Of a DNA stretch of 14,146 nucleotides, positions 4,921 to 14,146 are shown piece after piece. The stretch is taken from contig JAPDJS010000004.1 of the NCBI GenBank assembly GCA_029258975.1, forward strand, positions 1 through 14,146. Reading direction: 5' to 3'. The position numbers and the translations under genes are program-made. Below the pieces are notes generated by a model that was given only the letters and a program-made list of their open reading frames with translations, was not told the origin of the DNA and did no database searches. The stretch comes from Thermoplasmatota archaeon. GTDB taxonomy: Archaea > Thermoplasmatota > B47-G6 > B47-G6B > 47-G6. Positions within the stretch are counted from its first letter, which is position 1; every line of letters starts with the position of its first letter.

Positions 4921-5538
4921 ATGGAGCTTTACTGCCCCACATGTAATAAAGTCACTGAGCACGAAATCATAAAAATTCGTGGGAAGAAAGTCAAAGAAGG
5001 CATCGCCCAGTGTAAAGTCTGTAATACTATTCATGATTTTCGTATTGATGACTCTAAGCCCCCTTATGTAGAGGTCAAAACCATCGTTAGTGATGTAGAT
5101 AAATCATGGACGGAAAGAATAAAATTAGAAAGAACTAAAGTCCTTCGTGTTGGAGAAGAGTTCTGGGTAAATGGTAAAAAATTAAGACTAAAAATTACTG
5201 CAATAGATTGTAAGGACGGTCTAAGAAGAAGGGCTGCAAAAGCAGAAGATGTAGATACTCTGTGGACCATAAGATACGATAGAATTCGCGTAAAGTTCTC
5301 AGTTCATCGGGGGCCATTAACCAGTTCTCATATCGTTTGGATGGTCCCTGAGGAGTACATAGAAATCGGTGATGTATACAAGTTTGGAGAGCTTTATGGA
5401 GTGGTAACAAAGATAAAAACAGAAAGCGGCGTAATAAACAAAGGAAGGGTTCAAGCAAAGGATGTTGTAAGGGTGTATTGTCGTGCCCTTAAGAGAAGGT
5501 TGGGAAGAGCAATCGAAGAGGCGGGAGGCACTTATTAG
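4921..5538 (+). CDS. HVO_0476-family zinc-ribbon protein
   Basis: This is a 205-residue cytoplasmic protein of unknown role. An N-terminal zinc ribbon is formed by C5-x2-C8 and C31-x2-C34. A mainly beta-strand basic domain follows, with blocks [21 protein letters not shown] near residue 76 and [24 protein letters not shown] near 107. The block [17 protein letters not shown] (residues 53-69), the AEDV...TLWT segment and the tail [19 protein letters not shown] (near 178-196) resemble the conserved archaeal family named after Haloferax HVO_0476, as I recall it. No enzyme motif was seen; nucleic-acid or protein binding is only a guess. GGTGG lies six bases before the ATG. The next gene, pcm, starts 56 bases before this gene ends, which points to co-expression and perhaps a shared task. 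Confidence 0.88.
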
Positions 5539-6142
5539 AAAACTTCAACGGGAGGGGATTATAAAGAGCAATAAGGTAAAAAGAGCAATGCTTAAAGTTC
5601 CCAGACACCTTTTTGTTCCACCACACTTAGCAAAATATGCATACGAGGATTCGCCTCTTCCCATAGGACATGGCCAAACCATTTCTGCGCCCCATATGGT
5701 AGCAATGATGAGCGAGCTTTTGGATCTTGAGGAGGGTCAAAAGGTATTAGAGATCGGTACGGGCAGCGGCTATCAAGCTGCAATTCTTGCCGAAATTGTT
5801 GGTAATGAGGGTCTTATAGTAAGTGTGGAATACATACCAGACCTAGCAAAAGGTGCATATAGAACTCTTAAGTCTCTAGGATATGATAATGTCCTCGTGG
5901 TTATTTTTGATGGTTCCCTAGGATTTCCGTCCTTAAAACCATACGACAGAATAATTGTCACGTGCGCATCTCCAAGATTTCCAGAACACCTTCTAAGGCA
6001 GCTTAAGCCGGATGGTATTATGGTAGTTCCTGTTGGAGGGTCCTTTTATCAGAAACTAGTAGTGTATAGGAGAGGAAAAATAGAGGATTACGGCTATGTC
6101 GCCTTCGTACCAATGAGAGGTAAAAAAGGTTCTTTTCCTTAA
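5483..6142 (+). CDS. pcm: Protein-L-isoaspartate O-methyltransferase
   Basis: This enzyme repairs aged proteins by methylating L-isoaspartyl residues with S-adenosylmethionine. It has 219 residues, the usual length. The substrate-side block [20 protein letters not shown] is at residues 54-73, followed by SAM motif [19 protein letters not shown], near 90-107. Further on are [12 protein letters not shown] near 153, [16 protein letters not shown] near 170 and the C-terminal [10 protein letters not shown]. The post-II position usually reading GDGS reads FDGS here, a small deviation. The GTG start at 5483 is preferred because residues from about 7 ([20 protein letters not shown]) align with the N terminus of Pyrococcus Pcm. 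GGGTG also lies seven bases upstream. This start makes a 56-base overlap with the zinc-ribbon gene. The stop overlaps the convergent FEN-1 stop. Confidence 0.95.
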
Positions 6143-7158
6143 AATAACGTTTTTTGTCTAGCCTTTTTAGACCTATACTTTTGAAGGGCATTTAATACCC
6201 TGTCCTTTGAGAAGTCATGTTCTTCACAAAGAATTTCCACTACCTTGTCCTCGTCAGGTTCCTTCCATTTCAGAGCATAGTCATCTGTTGTAGGGGGATT
6301 AAGGAAGAATTTCCTAATTTCGAAAAGGACTTCATCGTATTTTACTCCTAAAACCTTTAATGCTCCCTCAAGGTCTCCTGCGCTCCTTACTATTTCGTAT
6401 GCTCTCTTGGGACCTACGCCTTCAAAACCCTCGTTGTAATCCGTACCGATTAAAATTGCAATATCAATGAGCTGTTCACGAGTAATTCTCATAGCATTTA
6501 GGAGGTCATCTAAAACGATTAGTTCTGGCTTCACTTCAACATAAACATTCTTTCCTGGAAGTTTCCTTTTACCAGTAAGCGTAAGGTTTCTTATTAGCCG
6601 CGGACTTCCAAATAACAAAGAGTCATAGTCCTGCGAGACCGACGCATATACGTCTCCTTTCTTTGCCATATAGGCTGCCTGGGCCTCACCTTCAGACGGT
6701 GCTTGAACATATGGAATTCCCAAGGCTTCTAAAAGCCTTTTTGCATCTTCAACCATTTCTGGAGTTAACTTTGAAGCCATAGCAGCCAGTTTTCTAGCCT
6801 CTTGAAGATTTCCTGTCCTTAAAGCTTCTATATACTTCTTCTCAGCTTCTTCCTTTCTTTCTACTCTTTCTTCTATTTCTCTCTTCTTAAACTCGGGAGG
6901 TTTTCCATCAAACACATAAACTGGTCTAATCCCAACCTCTACAAGATTTGCTGTCCTATAATACAAACCACTAAGATGCGACGTCACCCTCCCTTGTCTG
7001 TCCATTAGGGGTTTTCCGTCCGGCTGTCTAATAGTAGTTATAAACTGATATAAGGCATTAAAGGCGTCTATAGCTACAACTTTACCCAAAAGTGAATTTA
7101 ACTCTACATCCTTTCCAACTCCTTCCGGAAAAATCTTTCGAAGGTCACTTACTCCCAT
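6139..7158 (-). CDS. fen: Flap endonuclease 1 (FEN-1)
   Basis: This structure-specific 5' nuclease removes flaps during Okazaki fragment maturation and repair. At 339 residues it has the usual archaeal length. The metal-binding acidic residues are present: D31 in [14 protein letters not shown]84 in [13 protein letters not shown]156 and E158 in [14 protein letters not shown]177 and D179 in [11 protein letters not shown], and D240 in LIGTDYNEG. The helical arch region is about 90-135. The helix-turn-helix segment [14 protein letters not shown] follows at 244-257. The C terminus is unusual. The PCNA-interacting box should read QxxLxxFF-like, but the protein ends as RQKTLF, just after QxxLF. A GGGGAGTGAT run abuts the ATG and serves as ribosome binding site. 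The gene lies 45 bases after the rhomboid gene and is probably in the same transcript. Its stop shares the palindrome TTAA with the convergent pcm stop. Confidence 0.97.
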
Positions 7159-7203: not shown

Positions 7204-8202
7204 CTACTCCCTAATTCTAACTTCGTAGCCACAGTTTATGCATCTTACGATACCATCAATATCGTCGTATTCTAAAGAGAATCCACAAACAGGGCAAGGC
7301 TTATTATTAATAAGCCTAGAGATCCAATAATCTCTATACTCCTCGTCATCAATTGCCCTTTGCAAAAGTTCTTCGTCATATGGAGAATATACAAACTTTC
7401 TCAAAACATCAAACCGATATTCTTTCTTTATAGGCCATAAAGACACTCTTCTGGAAGAATATCTCCTTGATCTAGGAAATACTATCTTGGGCACCACGGA
7501 TGTCCTTTCATGTATATAATATGCATAGATAATGCCGCCTATAGCTCCACCCACGTGGGCAGTGTGGGCTATCGTGGAGAATGGCTGGTATATTATTGCC
7601 ATGAGTTCAAACAAGAGTGTTATCATTACTGCAAAGTATATAGGCACTCCTGGAAGGGGTATAAACCCCACGAACATAGTAACTCGATGGGTAGGGAACA
7701 AAATCGCATAAGCAGCCAATACTCCAAAAATGGCTCCAGATGCTCCTACAAGGGTTACCCTAAGCATCGCACTAGTTACTACAGGACCATAAATACTCCT
7801 AAAAATTGTAAGAGTAATGATTAGGTGCACTAAATCAGCAGTTATGGCAGAAAATATGAAGACTTTAATAAAGTTCCTTTTACCAACAAGATATTCAAAA
7901 TATGAACAAAGAAACATTAAAACCAATGAATTAAAGAGCCAATGGAGGAATCCTCCGTGTACGAAAATAGAAGTTATAACAGTATATATTGTCCAGGGTC
8001 TTAGAGCAATAACTGCGGGGTTAAAACCTAGATATTCATACATTGGATATCCCAAGCTCTCTCCTATCCCTACAATAATTGTTGCAACCATACTTAGAAG
8101 CACTACAGAAACGGAAACCTGTAGTGGAGTAAACTTGTAAAAATAGTAAAATAAAAAGATGATTGTTGCAGCTACTATGAGAGGAACTACGAGCTCTTCC
8201 AA
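7204..8202 (-). CDS. Rhomboid-family intramembrane serine protease with C-terminal zinc ribbon
   Basis: This is a 332-residue multi-pass membrane protein. After an N-terminal helix (residues 5-22), the rhomboid core spans about 28-230. It carries H82/H87/N91 in SIFVHGGFLHWLFNSLVL, the catalytic serine S155 in VGASGAIFG, and the catalytic histidine H216 in HTAHVGGAIGG. All residues needed for a Ser-His dyad are present, so activity is expected. A basic cytoplasmic stretch (about 231-300) follows. The protein ends in a zinc ribbon, C303-x2-C306 and C321-x2-C324 (CPVCG, CINCG). The start is TTG: AGAGGTGA lies six bases before it and contains the TGA stop of the upstream surface protein gene, so translation of the two is probably coupled. 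The stop is doubled (TAG TAA). FEN-1 follows downstream. The native substrate is unknown; the neighbouring C-terminally anchored surface protein is a natural candidate. Confidence 0.92.
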   Translation of the reverse strand: MEELVVPLIVAATIIFLFYYFYKFTPLQVSVSVVLLSMVATIIVGIGESLGYPMYEYLGFNPAVIALRPWTIYTVITSIFVHGGFLHWLFNSLVLMFLCSYFEYLVGKRNFIKVFIFSAITADLVHLIITLTIFRSIYGPVVTSAMLRVTLVGASGAIFGVLAAYAILFPTHRVTMFVGFIPLPGVPIYFAVMITLLFELMAIIYQPFSTIAHTAHVGGAIGGIIYAYYIHERTSVVPKIVFPRSRRYSSRRVSLWPIKKEYRFDVLRKFVYSPYDEELLQRAIDDEEYRDYWISRLINNKPCPVCGFSLEYDDIDGIVRCINCGYEVRIRE

Positions 8203-8208
8203 CAGTTC

Positions 8209-8216
8209 TCACCTCT
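8209..8216 (-). promoter_or_regulatory. Rhomboid ribosome binding site overlapping the upstream stop codon
   Basis: AGAGGTGA on the minus strand contains both the final Arg codon and TGA stop of the surface protein gene. It precedes the rhomboid TTG by six bases. This is a typical arrangement for translational coupling. Confidence 0.75.
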
Positions 8217-10974
8217 TACTAGTATAATAATAGGCCAAAACTACAGCGGCCACTGTCGCTACTACAATTATGGCTATTACTGCCGATGAGGGGAATTGAG
8301 CCGGTTTAGCGCCAGTTGAGGCCACAGCATAAAGACCATCGTTCTGAACCATGGCTTTATAATAGAGATTTCCTTGAGCATCATTACCTAAATATGCTGT
8401 AGGTATCACTTTCCACGTGCCGCTGGACTCGTCATAGTAGAATAACGATACGCTTTCCTTACCTCCCAAGGTTTCTGCAAGATCTTCACTTACTTTAAAC
8501 TGTATGGCCCCTACAGAATTTTGTGGGAGCGTAGATACGTATAGATACCTCACGCCATCAAGTCCTTCTACAGGACTTATATCATAAACTTCCCAATAAA
8601 CTGTAGCAGGGCTCTTTAGATACACTGCAACGAAAATAACGTCATTTATTGTCGTAGACGTCTCGGCTTCCTCCATTCCGGATGAAATCACATGACCCTC
8701 CCAAGGTGGGGGGTACGGTGTAAGCGTTGGAGTGGGTGTTGGTGTTTCAGTAGGCGTCTCGGTAGGAGTCTGGGTTGGGGTCTCTGTTGGAGTCTCAGTA
8801 GGTGTTTCGGTAGGTGGTGGAGAGATCTCTACGTCAAAGACCTTTTCAGCTACGTTCCCCGCAGCATCGTATACTTTTACATATACGCGATGATATCCGT
8901 ATGAAACTTCAAATTCTATATAGCCCAGAGCATTATAAGAGACGTCTATGGATATTTCATCTACTTTAACCTCATAATTTGCTATGCCACTAAACTCGTC
9001 CGTGACGTTCACGTGCACTGTGGAGTCTTCTACCCACACGTCTCCGATAATGGGTGGCGTAAGGTCTACTTTAAATCTAACTTCTACAGGATCTCCTATG
9101 TTTCCTAACGAATCCACACCACGAACTAGAAGTACGTACTCTCCTTCAGGTAAACTTAATTCTGTCTCTCCATCAAACATCTTCCAGGTTGCTCCACCGT
9201 CTAGTGAATATTCGTAATAGCTAATATCCGCATCATAGGAGCTTACCTTCAAAGTAATGGGCATATCATTCTTACCGTACAAGCTCCCAGACTTAGGTTC
9301 AATAATCTTTACTTTAGGACCCGTTTGGTCTACTTCAACAATAAACGTTTTCTCATTAACATTTCCGGCTATATCTCTTGCAATAACCTTATACTCGTAG
9401 GTGCCTTCCTCAAGAGTGTCTTTAATTGATTTTACAACTCCAGAAACTGGATCTACAAAGGTCGTTCCAGCAATCATTTCATTGTCCCTATAAATCTCAT
9501 ACGACGCAAGATAGGTGTTATCTTCGATGGTTATGTTTATAGTGATCGTGTTCTCTTTAGTTCTGTAATACGAGAATGGAAGACCAATACTTGGTCCTGT
9601 AACATCATAAAAAACTGTAAAGTTTGAAATGGGCCCTACATTCCCAAGATCGTCTATTGCAGCCATTTTTACTTCGTGTAGACCCTCAGACAATTCTGAG
9701 AAGTCTATAACGATTTTTGCATATCCATGTGGGGCTTCTACCATGTACCATTTGCTGTCATCAATTGCATACTTGAACATTACACAGTCTCCACTTGACG
9801 ATGTTAACGTTAGGTTGATGTGACTATTTGTAAAGTAATATGGTGACCAAGGAGGCATTATGGCATCCTCTACAAAATATGTGAAAAGAGGTCCCGTGGT
9901 ATCTACCACATAAGTCCACGTAGCATTAGCGATGTTTCCTCCATAGTCTTCAAGATATACGCTAAAGACATATTCCCCGTCATTAAGATCAGAAACTGGT
10001 TGGAGAGCCATTTTGTATACGTGAACCTGTGTTCCGTTTATCGTAATCACATAATGATCATAAACGAATATCTTCCACTCAGATAGCTCCGATATTGGTA
10101 CTCCGTTTATCGTAATGTTCATTACTTTTGCTCCAAGATCTTCAGTGTAATTGAAAAATATTAGGGGCCTTGCATTAGAGAACCTTCCCTCTGGACCGTA
10201 GCTTAGAATGGTAATTGAATAGGAATCCTCCTTATCCGTTACTATAACTTTTATCGTGGTTTCATTTTTATTTCCAAAGTAATCGTAAGCAACAGCCCTA
10301 ATATACAGCTCCCCTGTGACTGTAGGTACATAGCTCGCTTCATACCTGTTTGGACCTATTTTCTCAACTGATACAAGATTTTCGGATCCGTATTGTCCCT
10401 GTCTTACGTAGAGGTTTACGCTTTCAATAAGGAAGTTCTCTTCTACGTTTATTATAATGTCAAGGGGTTCGCCAGGTCTCACAACACCTTCGGGAGTAGG
10501 CGTTATAAAAGTAATAACCGGAGGTTTATTATCCTCATCAGGAAGATAAAACGAGCTAGGATACGGCTTAAGTTCTAGAGAATCATATATTATCTTTCTA
10601 ATAACAAAATAACGGGCATTTGGAAGTCTTATTTCTGGTGGGAGAGGAAAATATCCCTGGTTAGTTACATATACTGGAATTAAATCACCTAATATGGACG
10701 TTCCGTTTTCCGCTAACACGTCAACAAACATCGTAGCATTATGCACGGGAGTCATGTTGCCCCAGTAAAGTCTCATATACCAATTTTCCTTCAAATATTG
10801 GTCGTTAAAGATACTTTTCGGAATCTCAGTAAAAATATCGCCCATATTGTTTAATATATACATTTTTTCGCTGTCTGCCAGAGCCAAGACGTTATTGCCT
10901 ACCATTCCTAATAAAATCACAAAAGATGTTGCTATGATTAACCCTACTTGTATAAGAGCAAACAATCTCTTCAT
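8209..10974 (-). CDS. Membrane-anchored surface protein with Ig-like repeats and Thr/Pro stalk
   Basis: This is a 921-residue secreted protein. Residues 1-32 form a signal peptide (MKRLFALIQVGLIIATSFVI start, cleavage probably after VLA). From about 150 to 720 there are at least six Ig-like units. Each ends in a repeat of the type YxVxAxDxxGN followed by VDxTGP: YDYFGN, LEDYGGN, IDDLGN, ARDIAGN, GVDSLGN and VYDAAGN, with VDTTGP, YDVTGP, VDQTGP and VDLTPP between. A Thr/Pro stalk of eight TxTP units lies near 722-757. The next domain contains FYYDESSGTWKVIP and resembles the PGF-pre-PGF domain of archaeal surface proteins. The protein ends in a membrane helix (SSAVIAIIVVATVAAVVLAY) and the basic tail YYTSKR. 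There are many NxS/T sequons and a single cysteine. GGGTGA precedes the ATG. The likely role is an S-layer stalk or anchor. The architecture is firm, the function inferred. Confidence 0.85.
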   Translation of the reverse strand: MKRLFALIQVGLIIATSFVILLGMVGNNVLALADSEKMYILNNMGDIFTEIPKSIFNDQYLKENWYMRLYWGNMTPVHNATMFVDVLAENGTSILGDLIPVYVTNQGYFPLPPEIRLPNARYFVIRKIIYDSLELKPYPSSFYLPDEDNKPPVITFITPTPEGVVRPGEPLDIIINVEENFLIESVNLYVRQGQYGSENLVSVEKIGPNRYEASYVPTVTGELYIRAVAYDYFGNKNETTIKVIVTDKEDSYSITILSYGPEGRFSNARPLIFFNYTEDLGAKVMNITINGVPISELSEWKIFVYDHYVITINGTQVHVYKMALQPVSDLNDGEYVFSVYLEDYGGNIANATWTYVVDTTGPLFTYFVEDAIMPPWSPYYFTNSHINLTLTSSSGDCVMFKYAIDDSKWYMVEAPHGYAKIVIDFSELSEGLHEVKMAAIDDLGNVGPISNFTVFYDVTGPSIGLPFSYYRTKENTITINITIEDNTYLASYEIYRDNEMIAGTTFVDPVSGVVKSIKDTLEEGTYEYKVIARDIAGNVNEKTFIVEVDQTGPKVKIIEPKSGSLYGKNDMPITLKVSSYDADISYYEYSLDGGATWKMFDGETELSLPEGEYVLLVRGVDSLGNIGDPVEVRFKVDLTPPIIGDVWVEDSTVHVNVTDEFSGIANYEVKVDEISIDVSYNALGYIEFEVSYGYHRVYVKVYDAAGNVAEKVFDVEISPPPTETPTETPTETPTQTPTETPTETPTPTPTLTPYPPPWEGHVISSGMEEAETSTTINDVIFVAVYLKSPATVYWEVYDISPVEGLDGVRYLYVSTLPQNSVGAIQFKVSEDLAETLGGKESVSLFYYDESSGTWKVIPTAYLGNDAQGNLYYKAMVQNDGLYAVASTGAKPAQFPSSAVIAIIVVATVAAVVLAYYYTSKR
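8716..8814 (-). repeat. Degenerate 12-base tandem repeat encoding TETP units
   Basis: Eight in-frame 12-base units encode TETP, TETP, TETP, TQTP, TETP, TETP, TPTP and TLTP. Third-codon bases vary between units, so the repeat is kept at protein level and is not a fresh duplication. Such Thr/Pro tracts are usually O-glycosylated extended spacers. Confidence 0.85.
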
Positions 10975-11035
10975 CGTTAGTCACCCAAAGATTTCATGGG
11001 ATGATGTAGAGTGCTATGAGCATGAACGTGTCCTA

Positions 11036-11046
11036 CTTTAAAATAG
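11036..11046 (-). promoter_or_regulatory. Putative TATA box of the anchored surface protein gene
   Basis: The minus strand reads CTATTTTAAAG within CCCTATTTTAAAGTAGG. It lies about 65 bases before the ATG at 10974, which would leave a leader of about 40 bases. The flanks CCTA and TAGG form a short inverted repeat around it, which may be chance. A second AT-rich block at 11055-11075 is an alternative. Confidence 0.35.
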
Positions 11047-11119
11047 GGTAATCTCAAATAAAAAGATATTTTTCATTATTCAACAAAAAAGCTTCTTATG
11101 CAAAACCCAGAAACCTCAC

Positions 11120-11172
11120 TTTTATTCTAAAAATATGGTACAACAAAAATTTAAAAATGAAAAGAAAGGAAA
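11120..11172 (-). terminator. T-rich terminator after the large surface protein gene
   Basis: Directly after the stop codon the minus strand is pyrimidine- and T-rich, with TTTCCTTTCTTTTC, then TTTTT, then TTTTTG and ATATTTTTAG. Runs of T like these are the usual intrinsic termination signals of archaea. No strong hairpin was seen. Partial read-through into the next surface gene is possible. Confidence 0.5.
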
Positions 11173-14146
11173 TCATAGAAGAAAGCGAACAGGTGAAAAG
11201 TCTGCAGCCATTGTTCCCTCTGAGAATGGTGCTACGGTGAATGTAATTACTGTTCTTGCGCCATCGAATGGTAGTACAGATCCTGCTGGTCCAAGTTCAA
11301 TGAATCTGTCCCAGTCATGTAGAGTAATTACCATCGTGTAGTCTCCTGCAGGCATTGTTGGTGGCAACAGTACGGGTATTCTCACAGTTCTCTCTTCGTA
11401 TGGCTGTAGCTGTACGTATGCAGTAGTAATTGTCCACTCACCGCCTTCGAGTCCAGTACCAGTGCGGTAGATGCTTATGTAAACTGTGATGTTCGTGACG
11501 AGTGGTGTGTTGGACTTGAGCGTTATGTCAATGTAGAACGGTGTTCCTGGCATAATCACAGATCCGGTAACTGGTGTAGGCTCTGACACGTCCTCAATGA
11601 CTACGTATGGATAGTACGCTAGGATTGTGAACTCGATCTCCACACTGAAGACATATGTTCCGTTTACGTATACCTCAGCAATTAGCTTAGCCGGTGTGTC
11701 TTCTCTGAAGAGGCTTGGTGAATAGCTGAATGTGGCCTTACCTTCTGCATCTGTAGTAACGTTCTCGTCTACAATCTTCACGGTGCTGTCAGTTATCTCC
11801 TTGAGTGTAACTTCTGCGCCAGATATTGGTCCGTATGCATCGTTGGAGACTAGTACCGTTACGTCATAGATGTTGTACGCCTCTACCTCCTCAGGTATGC
11901 CGCTAATCTCTGCGGTGTTAGGCAGTGGCTGTATCTCTACTGTAATGTTCTTGTATATGCTTCCGTAGCTTACGTTGATCCATGCTGTGCCAGCTTCAAT
12001 TGGCCAGATCTCAAATGATACGCTCTCGTTGTTGTATGTAGCCTCGGTTGGTGCAATGATGTGTTCTGAGGTCTCTATGCTTAGTACGTGCTCACCATAT
12101 GCTGGGTTGCCATACTCGTCGTATACATCTACTGTTACCGTTATCTTCTCAGTAACTAGTGCCGGATCTGGCGTGTATGTTACAACAATCTCTGCTGGAG
12201 GTCCTGCACGAACTTCAAACGTGGTGCTACCTACCTCGTTGCCTGCATAATATGCAGTTACCGTTTCGTCTACTTTGTACGTTCCTATGGACTCTGGTGC
12301 CGTGTATTCTACAGTCACGCTTCCGTCTACTCCCGTTGTCACCTCAGTTGCTTCGAGTGTGCCATATATGGTCTCAAGAGTGATTGGCGCGTATGGTACC
12401 TTCACTTCGAAGGACTCTTCGCCGAAGTAGTTGACAAACTTACCCTCGGTCTCGTTATAGTATGCAGTAATCGTTAATGTTGTGCTCTCGCCAACAGTAA
12501 CTACAGTAGGTCCACTTATCACAACTTTGTTGACCTCAGGTATAATGTACAACGTTACTGTAGAGCTTACATTGCCCTCCCAGATTTCCTTGGTCTCTCC
12601 AGTAACGGGATCTGTGTATCTTAGCAAGTGTGCTTCAATGACTACTGGTCCGTATGCAAGTGCCTCAAACTTTGCCCAGTCACCTACTTCAGGTATCTCT
12701 ACAGCTCTTACTGCACCGCTCTCGTTTCTTAGCACAATCTTCCACTTGAGCTTAACGTCTTCTGAGCTCAATACGTTATCATACTGGTCATATATCGTTG
12801 CCTTAAGCATGAAGTGGTCTCCTACAAATACCACATAGTAATCCGCACCCTCAGTAAAGTCTGTTGTCTCTCCATTGAGTTCTACTAGATTGATCTTAAG
12901 CTCTGTTGGTTCAGCAGGATATATCTCTATTGTACCCAACGTTACAGTTCTGTTGTTGCCCTCAGCGTCTTCAAGATATATTGTGATGTCGTATGTTCCA
13001 GCCTCATCTGGTACTTGGATAGTAATTGTATCGTTCCAGTACCAGACGTTGTTACCTTCAACAGCCGTAAACGTGTCGTTATAGACGTACTGGTCTCCTA
13101 TTGTAAGGTTATACACCACAGGCTTGGATGGCCAATCTGTTATGTTCACTTGAATGTTTATTGTGTTTCCAGCATAGGTCTCCTCAGGTGCTGAGATTAG
13201 TGTTGCTTCTGGTCCAGCATTATCAACCTTCACTTGTACAGTCTTTTCGCCTATGTTTCCTGCAATGTCAGGCACAGATATCGTAATGTTGTATATTCCA
13301 GTAACTCCCTTGTCAAAGGTTATCGTAACGTTAATCCAACCATTTGTGGCGTTGTATATCCAAGTAGCTCCGCTAGCATTTACTGCGCTTGCGTCAACGG
13401 TTATGTTGTTCCAATCAACTCCAGTACCCTCATCAGTTACAGAATAGTTGATGTATATGCTCTCACCATCGACGTACACGTCATCTAAGTCTGAGCTCTC
13501 ACTAACAGTAATCTCTGGCTCTGCGCTATCATATATCGATTGTACAGTATCGCTATCTGAGCGTGCATCGTGAGTTATTGCATATACCTTGAAGTAGACT
13601 GTTTGTGCTGTACCATAGCTGATTGATAGCTTCTCCTCCAATGTACTGTTGTCTATGGTAACTGTGGTGGCTGTTGATCCTAGACCGTTATATACAAGTT
13701 CCCACGAGCCTGATGTACCGGTCTTGGAGGCATATACTAAGAATCCTGAATAGTTTCCTGTACCGTCAATCTCCCATGAAAGTGTTACCTTTCCGTCCTT
13801 CTGAGGTGTTGCAGTAAGGTTATATATGTCTATGTTCTGCTCGCTGAGTTGATAGTTCTTATAACCAGATGCTGTTGGTCCGTTGTTGCCGCTAAAGTCC
13901 TTGGCGTTCCAAGTAACAATAAGCGGCACTCCAGTATCCATTGCTGTCGAATCTACTGTTATCGTAATATTTACATAATACGTGAAGTCTTCGAGAGCTC
14001 CCTTTCTTTCTACAGATATGTCATCTACAGTAACATAAACGCTATCAGCACTATTCTTCTTGTAGTCGTAATTCTCAACTAAAGTCTCGTTATAAATTGG
14101 ATCCTTAAGGAACTCTACATATGCCTTTGCCTCATACGACGCTATG
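11173..14146 (-). CDS. Large S-layer-like surface protein, Ig/FnIII-type domains, N terminus outside window
   Basis: About 990 residues are visible and the frame stays open to the right edge, so the N terminus and any signal peptide are missing. The Met at 13941 is internal. Near the visible start is a fibronectin III-like unit (KVTLSWEIDGTGNYSGFLVY). Ig-like units of bacterial Big type follow, with linkers VSVPDIAGNIGEKTVQVKVDN, VYDEYGNPAYGEHVLSI and VTTDAEGKATFSYSP. The last domain is beta-rich, and the protein ends in GTMAADFSPVRFLL with no membrane helix or sorting motif. I saw no cysteine and more than twenty NxS/T sequons. Codon use looks more biased than in the neighbours; for example, nearly all the lysines I checked are AAG. 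This suggests very high expression. The protein is probably the main S-layer (canopy) protein, by analogy with SlaA-type proteins. A secreted adhesin is the alternative. Sequence-level family assignment is not possible by eye. Confidence 0.8.
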   Translation of the reverse strand, partial: IASYEAKAYVEFLKDPIYNETLVENYDYKKNSADSVYVTVDDISVERKGALEDFTYYVNITITVDSTAMDTGVPLIVTWNAKDFSGNNGPTASGYKNYQLSEQNIDIYNLTATPQKDGKVTLSWEIDGTGNYSGFLVYASKTGTSGSWELVYNGLGSTATTVTIDNSTLEEKLSISYGTAQTVYFKVYAITHDARSDSDTVQSIYDSAEPEITVSESSDLDDVYVDGESIYINYSVTDEGTGVDWNNITVDASAVNASGATWIYNATNGWINVTITFDKGVTGIYNITISVPDIAGNIGEKTVQVKVDNAGPEATLISAPEETYAGNTINIQVNITDWPSKPVVYNLTIGDQYVYNDTFTAVEGNNVWYWNDTITIQVPDEAGTYDITIYLEDAEGNNRTVTLGTIEIYPAEPTELKINLVELNGETTDFTEGADYYVVFVGDHFMLKATIYDQYDNVLSSEDVKLKWKIVLRNESGAVRAVEIPEVGDWAKFEALAYGPVVIEAHLLRYTDPVTGETKEIWEGNVSSTVTLYIIPEVNKVVISGPTVVTVGESTTLTITAYYNETEGKFVNYFGEESFEVKVPYAPITLETIYGTLEATEVTTGVDGSVTVEYTAPESIGTYKVDETVTAYYAGNEVGSTTFEVRAGPPAEIVVTYTPDPALVTEKITVTVDVYDEYGNPAYGEHVLSIETSEHIIAPTEATYNNESVSFEIWPIEAGTAWINVSYGSIYKNITVEIQPLPNTAEISGIPEEVEAYNIYDVTVLVSNDAYGPISGAEVTLKEITDSTVKIVDENVTTDAEGKATFSYSPSLFREDTPAKLIAEVYVNGTYVFSVEIEFTILAYYPYVVIEDVSEPTPVTGSVIMPGTPFYIDITLKSNTPLVTNITVYISIYRTGTGLEGGEWTITTAYVQLQPYEERTVRIPVLLPPTMPAGDYTMVITLHDWDRFIELGPAGSVLPFDGARTVITFTVAPFSEGTMAADFSPVRFLL

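What the first reader, a model, noticed from the sequence alone, without database searches (positions are those of the whole stretch)
7204..14146. Candidate S-layer module: anchor-less canopy protein, membrane-anchored stalk protein and rhomboid protease in a row
Seen: a huge cysteine-free Ig-like protein without a C-terminal anchor, then an Ig-like protein with a Thr/Pro stalk and C-terminal membrane helix, then a rhomboid protease, all on one strand. Known: in Sulfolobales slaA (canopy, no anchor) and slaB (stalk with C-terminal anchor) are adjacent, and a rhomboid mutant in Haloferax volcanii alters the S-layer glycoprotein. Inference: this is an independently built canopy/stalk pair with a dedicated membrane protease for assembly, turnover or release.
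Basis: partly seen in the sequence, partly recalled or inferred. Interest (0 to 1): 0.72.

Follow-up and report, generated by a model that had tools for sequence, protein, structure and literature searches.

The report
Archaeal surface protein with partner protease
In an uncultured archaeon, a gene for a membrane-anchored surface protein is followed at once by the gene for a protease that cuts inside membranes; related archaea pair the same kind of protease with other anchored surface proteins, so it may cut its neighbour's anchor, whereas the proposed cell-coat pair remains plausible but unproven.

Summary
The row exists: a large secreted Ig-like protein without an anchor (5' end outside the window), a 921-aa Ig-like protein with a Thr/Pro stretch and C-terminal membrane helix, and an active-type rhomboid with a zinc ribbon. 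Its two links differ in strength. Stalk-rhomboid is solid: the rhomboid starts 7 nt after the stalk stop behind a ribosome-binding site, and a second species (L001) has stalk C-terminus, rhomboid and FEN1 in the same order. In other genomes of the phylum this rhomboid family lies, mostly overlapping, behind a different C-anchored surface protein (phospholipase-D, usually lamin-tail domains): 37 of 60 fetched high-scoring loci (one a remnant); 4 of 60 follow a giant cupredoxin-domain protein. The protease keeps an anchored neighbour while the neighbour changes, which favours a dedicated rhomboid-substrate pair like single-target rhombosortase. Against an obligate pair: nine loci lack an intact partner (seven show decayed remnants) and six of 60 have a housekeeping setting. 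Canopy-stalk is weak: adjacency seen only here, few canopy orthologues. Canopy traits (no anchor, 25 sequons where 9 are expected, strongest codon bias of ten genes) fit an abundant coat protein, but SlaA/SlaB membership is not met. Partly supported.

The parts
11173..14146 (-). Canopy candidate: large secreted Ig-like protein, C-terminal 990 aa visible, no membrane anchor, gene cut by the window edge
10975..11172 (-). AT-rich intergenic gap between canopy and stalk genes, with T-runs after the canopy stop
   Evidence: role as a transcription break is inference
8209..10974 (-). Stalk: signal peptide, Ig-like domains, Thr/Pro stretch, beta domain, C-terminal membrane helix (921 aa)
8824..10518 (-). 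Stalk residues 153-717: chain of Ig-like beta domains
8665..8817 (-). Stalk residues 720-770: Thr/Pro-rich stretch (TETP repeats; SP repeats in L001)
8233..8289 (-). Stalk residues 896-914: C-terminal membrane helix; over FPSxAV...AYY 18 of 23 residues are identical to L001, against 74 of 139 in the domain before it; proposed rhomboid target
   Evidence: target role is inference
8200..8215 (-). GAGGTGA (ribosome-binding-site-like) overlapping the stalk stop codon, then the TTG start of the rhomboid
7204..8202 (-). Rhomboid protease with C-terminal zinc ribbon (332 aa)
7507..7995 (-). Rhomboid domain PF01694, catalytic-type Ser155 and His216
7228..7296 (-). Zinc ribbon CPVCG...CINCG of the rhomboid
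6139..7158 (-). Flap endonuclease FEN1, next gene also in L001, not part of the surface module

Best explanation
The solid unit is stalk plus rhomboid. The stalk is exported, stays in the membrane by its C-terminal helix and projects Ig-like domains outward (read from the sequence; topology inferred). The rhomboid is made right behind it (shown: 7-nt spacing and ribosome-binding-site-like sequence; one message and translational coupling inferred) and most likely cuts the stalk's C-terminal helix near its outer end, releasing or turning over the stalk (inferred). The canopy is most likely an abundant secreted glycoprotein of the cell coat, possibly held by the stalk (inferred, weaker). The zinc ribbon is on the cytosolic side by the usual rhomboid topology and may control the enzyme (inferred).
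For: Stalk C-terminus, rhomboid and FEN1 in the same order in L001, with stop and start overlapping. The rhomboid family keeps an anchored surface neighbour of changing kind: a PLD protein in 37 of 60 fetched loci, one of them a remnant, and a giant cupredoxin-domain protein in 4 of 60. From the other side, of 60 high-scoring PLD proteins matched into the C-terminal region, 50 are directly followed by a listed rhomboid and 5 more on fetching; 1 is unclear and 4 are not. 31 of 55 rhomboid genes against 7 of 312 other genes in the same DNA follow a large C-anchored protein. One rhomboid per genome in 38 of 38 searched. Tree: the window clade falls on the side that holds 35 of the 37 PLD-linked rows (root drawn at the midpoint). 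[quoted passage not shown]
Against: No cleavage was shown. Nine loci lack an intact partner but keep an open rhomboid frame, so it has other work at least there. Six of 60 rhomboids sit in a housekeeping setting and 13 of 60 had none of the neighbours sought. Unpaired PLD relatives also carry hydrophobic C-termini (17 of 20 fetched), so an anchor needs no rhomboid beside it. The stalk-rhomboid pair itself rests on two species.
Confidence: 0.5

Rival explanations
1. One reading: canopy and stalk are a two-layer S-layer like SlaA/SlaB, and the rhomboid serves its assembly, turnover or release.
For: Same order and orientation as slaA-slaB, where slaB lies downstream of slaA and is cotranscribed (PMC6712394, passages). 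Canopy: no anchor, 25 sequons where composition predicts 9, lowest effective number of codons of ten genes (42.6) and 136 of 216 C-ending two-fold codons against 249 of 685 in the other nine, as expected of a very abundant protein. P0121 (stalk) and P0154 (canopy) are listed with a longest contig of the same length, 140976.
Against: Canopy-stalk adjacency seen once; only local matches in 15 of 389 genomes, at most two candidates scored in each row listed; the stalk does not share the canopy's codon bias (80 of 215); no long helix before the membrane segment; the bias could not be calibrated on ribosomal-region genes of G001.
Confidence: 0.35
2. The rhomboid is a general membrane quality-control protease; adjacency to anchored surface proteins reflects shared regulation by translational coupling, not a protease-substrate relation.
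For: Rhomboid kept where the partner decayed and in housekeeping settings; the only rhomboid found in each of 38 genomes; the DWRKRxW tail of the PLD partner encodes the rhomboid's ribosome-binding site and start codon, which explains its conservation.
Against: The neighbour is a C-anchored surface protein in three different settings, which shared regulation alone does not predict.
Confidence: 0.35
3. Chance row of unrelated genes left by rearrangement.
For: The canopy link rests on one contig. FEN1, PIMT and a zinc protein also stay near the rhomboid in L001, and zinc protein and PIMT lie near it in L086, L088, L095, L100 and L101, so its place may be set by an old housekeeping neighbourhood.
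Against: Overlap or 7-nt spacing in two species and the recurrence of anchored neighbours in distant genomes.
Confidence: 0.15

Closest known systems
Rhombosortase / GlyGly-CTERM, single-target form (Haft and Varghese 2011, PMC3237569)
   Same: Rhomboid next to a signal-peptide protein with one C-terminal membrane helix and basic tail (abstract and one section read).
   Different: TIGR03902 16.2 bits against a cut-off of 84; no GlyGly motif seen; archaeal, with zinc ribbon.
SlaA/SlaB S-layer of Sulfolobales
   Same: Anchor-less large secreted protein followed by a membrane-anchored beta-sandwich protein on one strand.
   Different: No SlaA or SlaB among sequence matches in solved structures; Thr/Pro stretch and beta domain in place of SlaB's 132-residue helix; tied to a rhomboid.
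Haloferax volcanii RhoII (HVO_0727)
   Same: Archaeal rhomboid with an envelope phenotype.
   Different: Known effect is on an N-glycan at N732, suspected substrates are PibD and Agl15 (PMC9263693, passages); its gene neighbours were not examined here.
Archaeosortase A processing of the H. volcanii S-layer glycoprotein
   Same: C-terminal sorting signal of a surface protein processed by a membrane protease (PMC9263693, passages).
   Different: Different enzyme (recalled as unrelated to rhomboids); no PGF-CTERM model was listed for the stalk or its C-terminal pieces.

Membership tests
Rhomboid protease S54 (PF01694) | Rhomboid domain with Ser-His catalytic pair | tested here: met
   88.3 bits against 22.6; Ser155, His216, H82, H87 and N91 invariant in A1
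Rhombosortase (TIGR03902) | Score above the curated cut-off | tested here: not met
   16.2 bits against 84
Rhombosortase (TIGR03902) | Target with GlyGly-CTERM motif, helix, basic tail | tested here: not met
   Helix and basic tail present, but the residues before the helix are FPS[S/T/G]AV; no GlyGly-CTERM model listed
Rhombosortase (TIGR03902) | Protease encoded next to its only target in single-target genomes | tested here: inconclusive
   Genes adjacent in window and L001; neither that the stalk is the target nor that it is the only one is shown
SlaA/SlaB two-component S-layer | Adjacent genes, anchor-less protein first, same strand | tested here: met
   cotranscription not testable
SlaA/SlaB two-component S-layer | SlaB: three beta-sandwich domains, long C-terminal helix forming a coiled coil, membrane segment | tested here: not met
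   Between 721 and 895 only a six-residue helix (830-835) is predicted, in a low-confidence region; SlaB from passages of PMC10903991
SlaA/SlaB two-component S-layer | Forms a two-dimensional lattice on the cell | not testable with these tools
   Needs cells or envelopes
Archaeosortase / PGF-CTERM substrate | PGF-CTERM motif before the helix | tested here: not met
   No such model listed for the stalk or its C-terminal 45 and 168 residues

The most novel reading that the evidence does not exclude
Thermoplasmatota have their own rhombosortase-like system: a zinc-ribbon rhomboid co-translated with one dedicated C-anchored surface protein, whose body has been swapped during evolution (PLD/lamin-tail enzyme, giant cupredoxin protein, Ig-like stalk) while the protease stayed. 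In the window's clade the swapped-in partner is the stalk of the cell coat, so an intramembrane protease would set how much coat is tethered.
Probability: 0.3. Interest if true: 0.68.

Novelty: new variant of a known kind. Interest (0 to 1): 0.5.

Why it matters
The roles and natural substrates of prokaryotic, and above all archaeal, rhomboids are little explored (PMC11985538, passages). An anchored neighbour read right before the protease gives a direct, testable substrate for one archaeal family, and partner swapping would show that the protease goes with the anchor rather than with the surface domain. If the canopy is a coat protein, it would also be an independently built canopy-and-anchor coat outside Sulfolobales.

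Tried and rejected
Whole genome of the window: none held. AlphaFold of stalk (mean pLDDT 54.6) and canopy (48.9) with 3- and 4-row alignments was poor; the fold search of the stalk gave generic Ig and beta chains, with S-layer SbsC and EA1 among many others, and is not used as evidence. The canopy model was not fold-searched.

I first read the DWRKRxW tail of the PLD partner as a sorting signal. Rejected: it encodes the ribosome-binding site and start codon of the rhomboid, which explains why it persists in decayed remnants. I also thought that a match running into the tail marks paired PLD proteins; on fetching 20 of the 30 others, 17 have a hydrophobic C-terminus too, so the split reflects a subfamily, not the presence of an anchor. 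The helix of PLD partners is not more conserved than the enzyme part (0.46 against 0.56 mean pairwise identity in 27 sequences).

Codon bias of the canopy could not be calibrated: genes of a ribosomal region of G001 show little bias against other G001 genes; gcvH, a small gene of the window, has 12 of 21 C-ending codons. Stalk C-terminal domain: 5 of 389 genomes, G001 and four weak local matches. Viral contigs: no canopy or stalk relative. Papers: none held rhomboid, Thermoplasmata and lamin tail domain together, nor Thermoplasmata, S-layer protein and Guaymas; rhomboid, S-layer, archaea and stalk gave one review on other systems (listing only); rhomboid protease with archaea, zinc ribbon and gene neighborhood (three of four terms) gave 19 papers of which 10 were listed and none opened.

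Counting notes. The 60 fetched loci are 60 of the 70 best-scoring rhomboid places after G001 (247 genomes had a match); skipped were G149, G257, G214, G129, G097, G262, G213, G042, G009 and G087. With G240 the answer shows 61 and 51; I report 60 and 50 without it. 30 rows stop before the tail, 0 of them next to a listed rhomboid; 20 of the 30 were fetched. G163 is among these 30 although its gene is split over two contigs, one piece next to the rhomboid. Four of the 7 control genes are the GatD-like genes of L086, L088, L100 and L101, which follow an anchored protein themselves.
Full report
What is there. The window is from an archaeon near an uncultured Thermoplasmata MAG: its rhomboid is 64% identical to that of L001 (Thermoplasmata archaeon B1_G16), and the closest homologues that bear a name, P0004 and P0122, are called Thermoplasmata. 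On the minus strand lie, in order, the 3' part of a large Ig-like gene (canopy), an Ig-like gene with C-terminal membrane helix (stalk), a rhomboid gene and FEN1. Beyond them stand an isoaspartate methyltransferase, a zinc protein and glycine-cleavage genes (names of the last two by my reading).

The canopy. 990 residues are visible; the 5' end is outside. P0152 has 1562 residues with a signal peptide, and P0152 and P0153 end like the window's protein. It has no membrane helix, no Cys in the visible part, and 25 N-glycosylation sequons where its composition predicts 9. Its codon use is the most biased of ten genes in the window: effective number of codons 42.6, and 136 of 216 two-fold codons end in C against 249 of 685 in the other nine. 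This fits a very abundant protein but could not be calibrated. Three homologous proteins were found among 7988 scored candidates; in 15 of 389 genomes of the phylum there are local matches only, with at most two candidates scored per genome in the rows listed.

The stalk. Signal peptide, beta domains between residues about 153 and 717, Thr/Pro stretch, another beta domain and a membrane helix at 896-914 with basic tail TSKR (the model has low confidence). P0121 is 77% identical over the full length, P0122 52% over 64% of it. Over the C-terminal 172 columns L001 is 56% identical: 18 of 23 over FPSxAV...AYY, the helix, against 74 of 139 before it. That is more than an anchor alone would need, but it is one comparison.

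The rhomboid. Catalytic-type residues and the four Cys of a C-terminal zinc ribbon are invariant in seven aligned sequences, window included. It begins 7 nt after the stalk stop, with GAGGTGA overlapping that stop; in L001 stop and start overlap. Translational coupling is the natural reading.

Related genomes. The rhomboid alignment matches 247 of 389 genomes of G001's phylum, Thermoplasmatota by the label of L001. I fetched DNA around 60 of the 70 best-scoring places. Directly upstream, same strand, within 60 nt, 37 of 60 have a PLD-domain protein; 32 of these 37 overlap the rhomboid frame as first called. Ten such proteins scanned with Pfam all had PLD domains and nine the lamin-tail domain; two more, one a fragment, had PLD only. 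One of the 37, L065, is only a remnant, and several are cut by contig ends. Four of 60 have a giant protein 97-105 nt upstream, with C-terminal helix and, in the two scanned, a cupredoxin domain. Six of 60 have a housekeeping setting: five with HemK-like, PIMT and zinc-protein genes, four of these with GatD and GatE, and L091, a short stretch, with one such gene (GatD, GatE and HemK are names by my reading). Thirteen of 60 have none of these. By a crude rule, 31 of 55 rhomboid genes with an upstream gene, and 7 of 312 other genes in the same DNA, follow a large C-anchored protein; four of those 7 are the GatD-like genes.

Seen from the partner, 254 of 389 genomes have a PLD match at E up to 1e-20. 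Among the 90 best rows, 60 match into the C-terminal region, and 50 of these 60 are followed at once by a listed rhomboid. Of the ten others, all fetched, five more are, one (G129) is unclear and four are not. Of the 30 rows that stop before the tail none is next to a listed rhomboid; 20 were fetched, 0 of 20 has one downstream, although 17 of 20 have a hydrophobic C-terminus. So the pairing belongs to one PLD subfamily, not to every anchored PLD protein.

The tree of 104 rhomboids keeps the window clade together (100/99) on the side that holds 35 of 37 PLD-linked rows; the root is drawn at the midpoint. The PLD label lies on several deep branches, so it may be the older state and the stalk a later swap, but some of these branches are long and unsure. 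Each of 38 genomes searched has one rhomboid match.

Results against a strict pair. In nine loci without an intact partner, seven still show a decayed stretch of its C-terminal end just before the rhomboid (tail remnants by tblastn in five genomes), while the rhomboid frame is open. The protease therefore outlives this partner. The DWRKRxW tail, found once in 27 of 30 genomes, twice in one and not in two, encodes the ribosome-binding site and start codon of the rhomboid, so its conservation is no evidence for a sorting signal.

Mechanism. I hold it most likely, at about one in two, that the rhomboid cuts the membrane helix of its neighbour. Shown: architecture, spacing, recurrence. Inferred: cleavage, its site (small residues at the outer end of the helix, FPS[S/T/G]A; the preference for small residues is recalled), and its use for release, turnover or re-anchoring. 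[quoted passage not shown] It may work like such a pair but is not a member: the rhombosortase model scores 16.2 bits against a cut-off of 84.

The S-layer reading. The layout resembles slaA-slaB, which lie in the same order and are cotranscribed (PMC6712394, passages), and the canopy's traits fit a coat protein. But adjacency was seen once, the stalk model lacks SlaB's long helix, and the gap of 198 nt with T-runs suggests separate transcription (inference). P0121 and P0154 seem to share one 140976-base contig, yet P0154 lacks its C-terminus, so their spacing is unknown. I put the two-layer model at about one in three.

Verdict. Observation confirmed; interpretation partly supported. The row hides a broader pattern than an S-layer pair: an archaeal rhomboid that travels with C-anchored surface proteins of changing kind.

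Noticed in passing
L065, L054, L061, L069, L080, L073, L052, L051, L075: Loss of the PLD surface gene between a tRNA-Cys gene and the rhomboid in nine loci; in seven the last codons are still recognisable, and they carry the rhomboid's ribosome-binding site and start.
   Followed up: partly
L044:3020-6880: The translated start of the PLD partner's longest frame reads like a tRNA gene, so its listed N-terminus is probably too long (my reading by analogy with the tRNA-Cys called).
   Followed up: no
L042 to L096: A convergent multi-helix membrane protein lies directly downstream of the rhomboid in 39 of 60 loci, often followed by a 10-helix membrane protein.
   Followed up: no
L084, L087, L089, L092: Open frames of 1838-2142 aa, cut by the stretch ends, with a C-terminal helix 97-105 nt before a rhomboid; cupredoxin domain found in the two scanned, L084 and L092.
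   Followed up: partly
L086, L088, L095, L100, L101: Rhomboid near a metal-hydrolase-like gene, zinc protein, PIMT, a HemK-like gene and, in four of the five, GatD/GatE; in L095 a relative of the cupredoxin protein lies 759 nt upstream. The window also has zinc protein and PIMT beyond FEN1.
   Followed up: partly
L086, L088, L100, L101: The GatD-like gene of these clusters follows a large C-anchored protein of its own.
   Followed up: no
window 4921-6142: The zinc-protein and isoaspartate-methyltransferase frames overlap by 56 nt as listed, and by the same length in L001.
   Followed up: no
L096:3549-4613: A papain-family protease gene abuts the PLD partner of a rhomboid.
   Followed up: no
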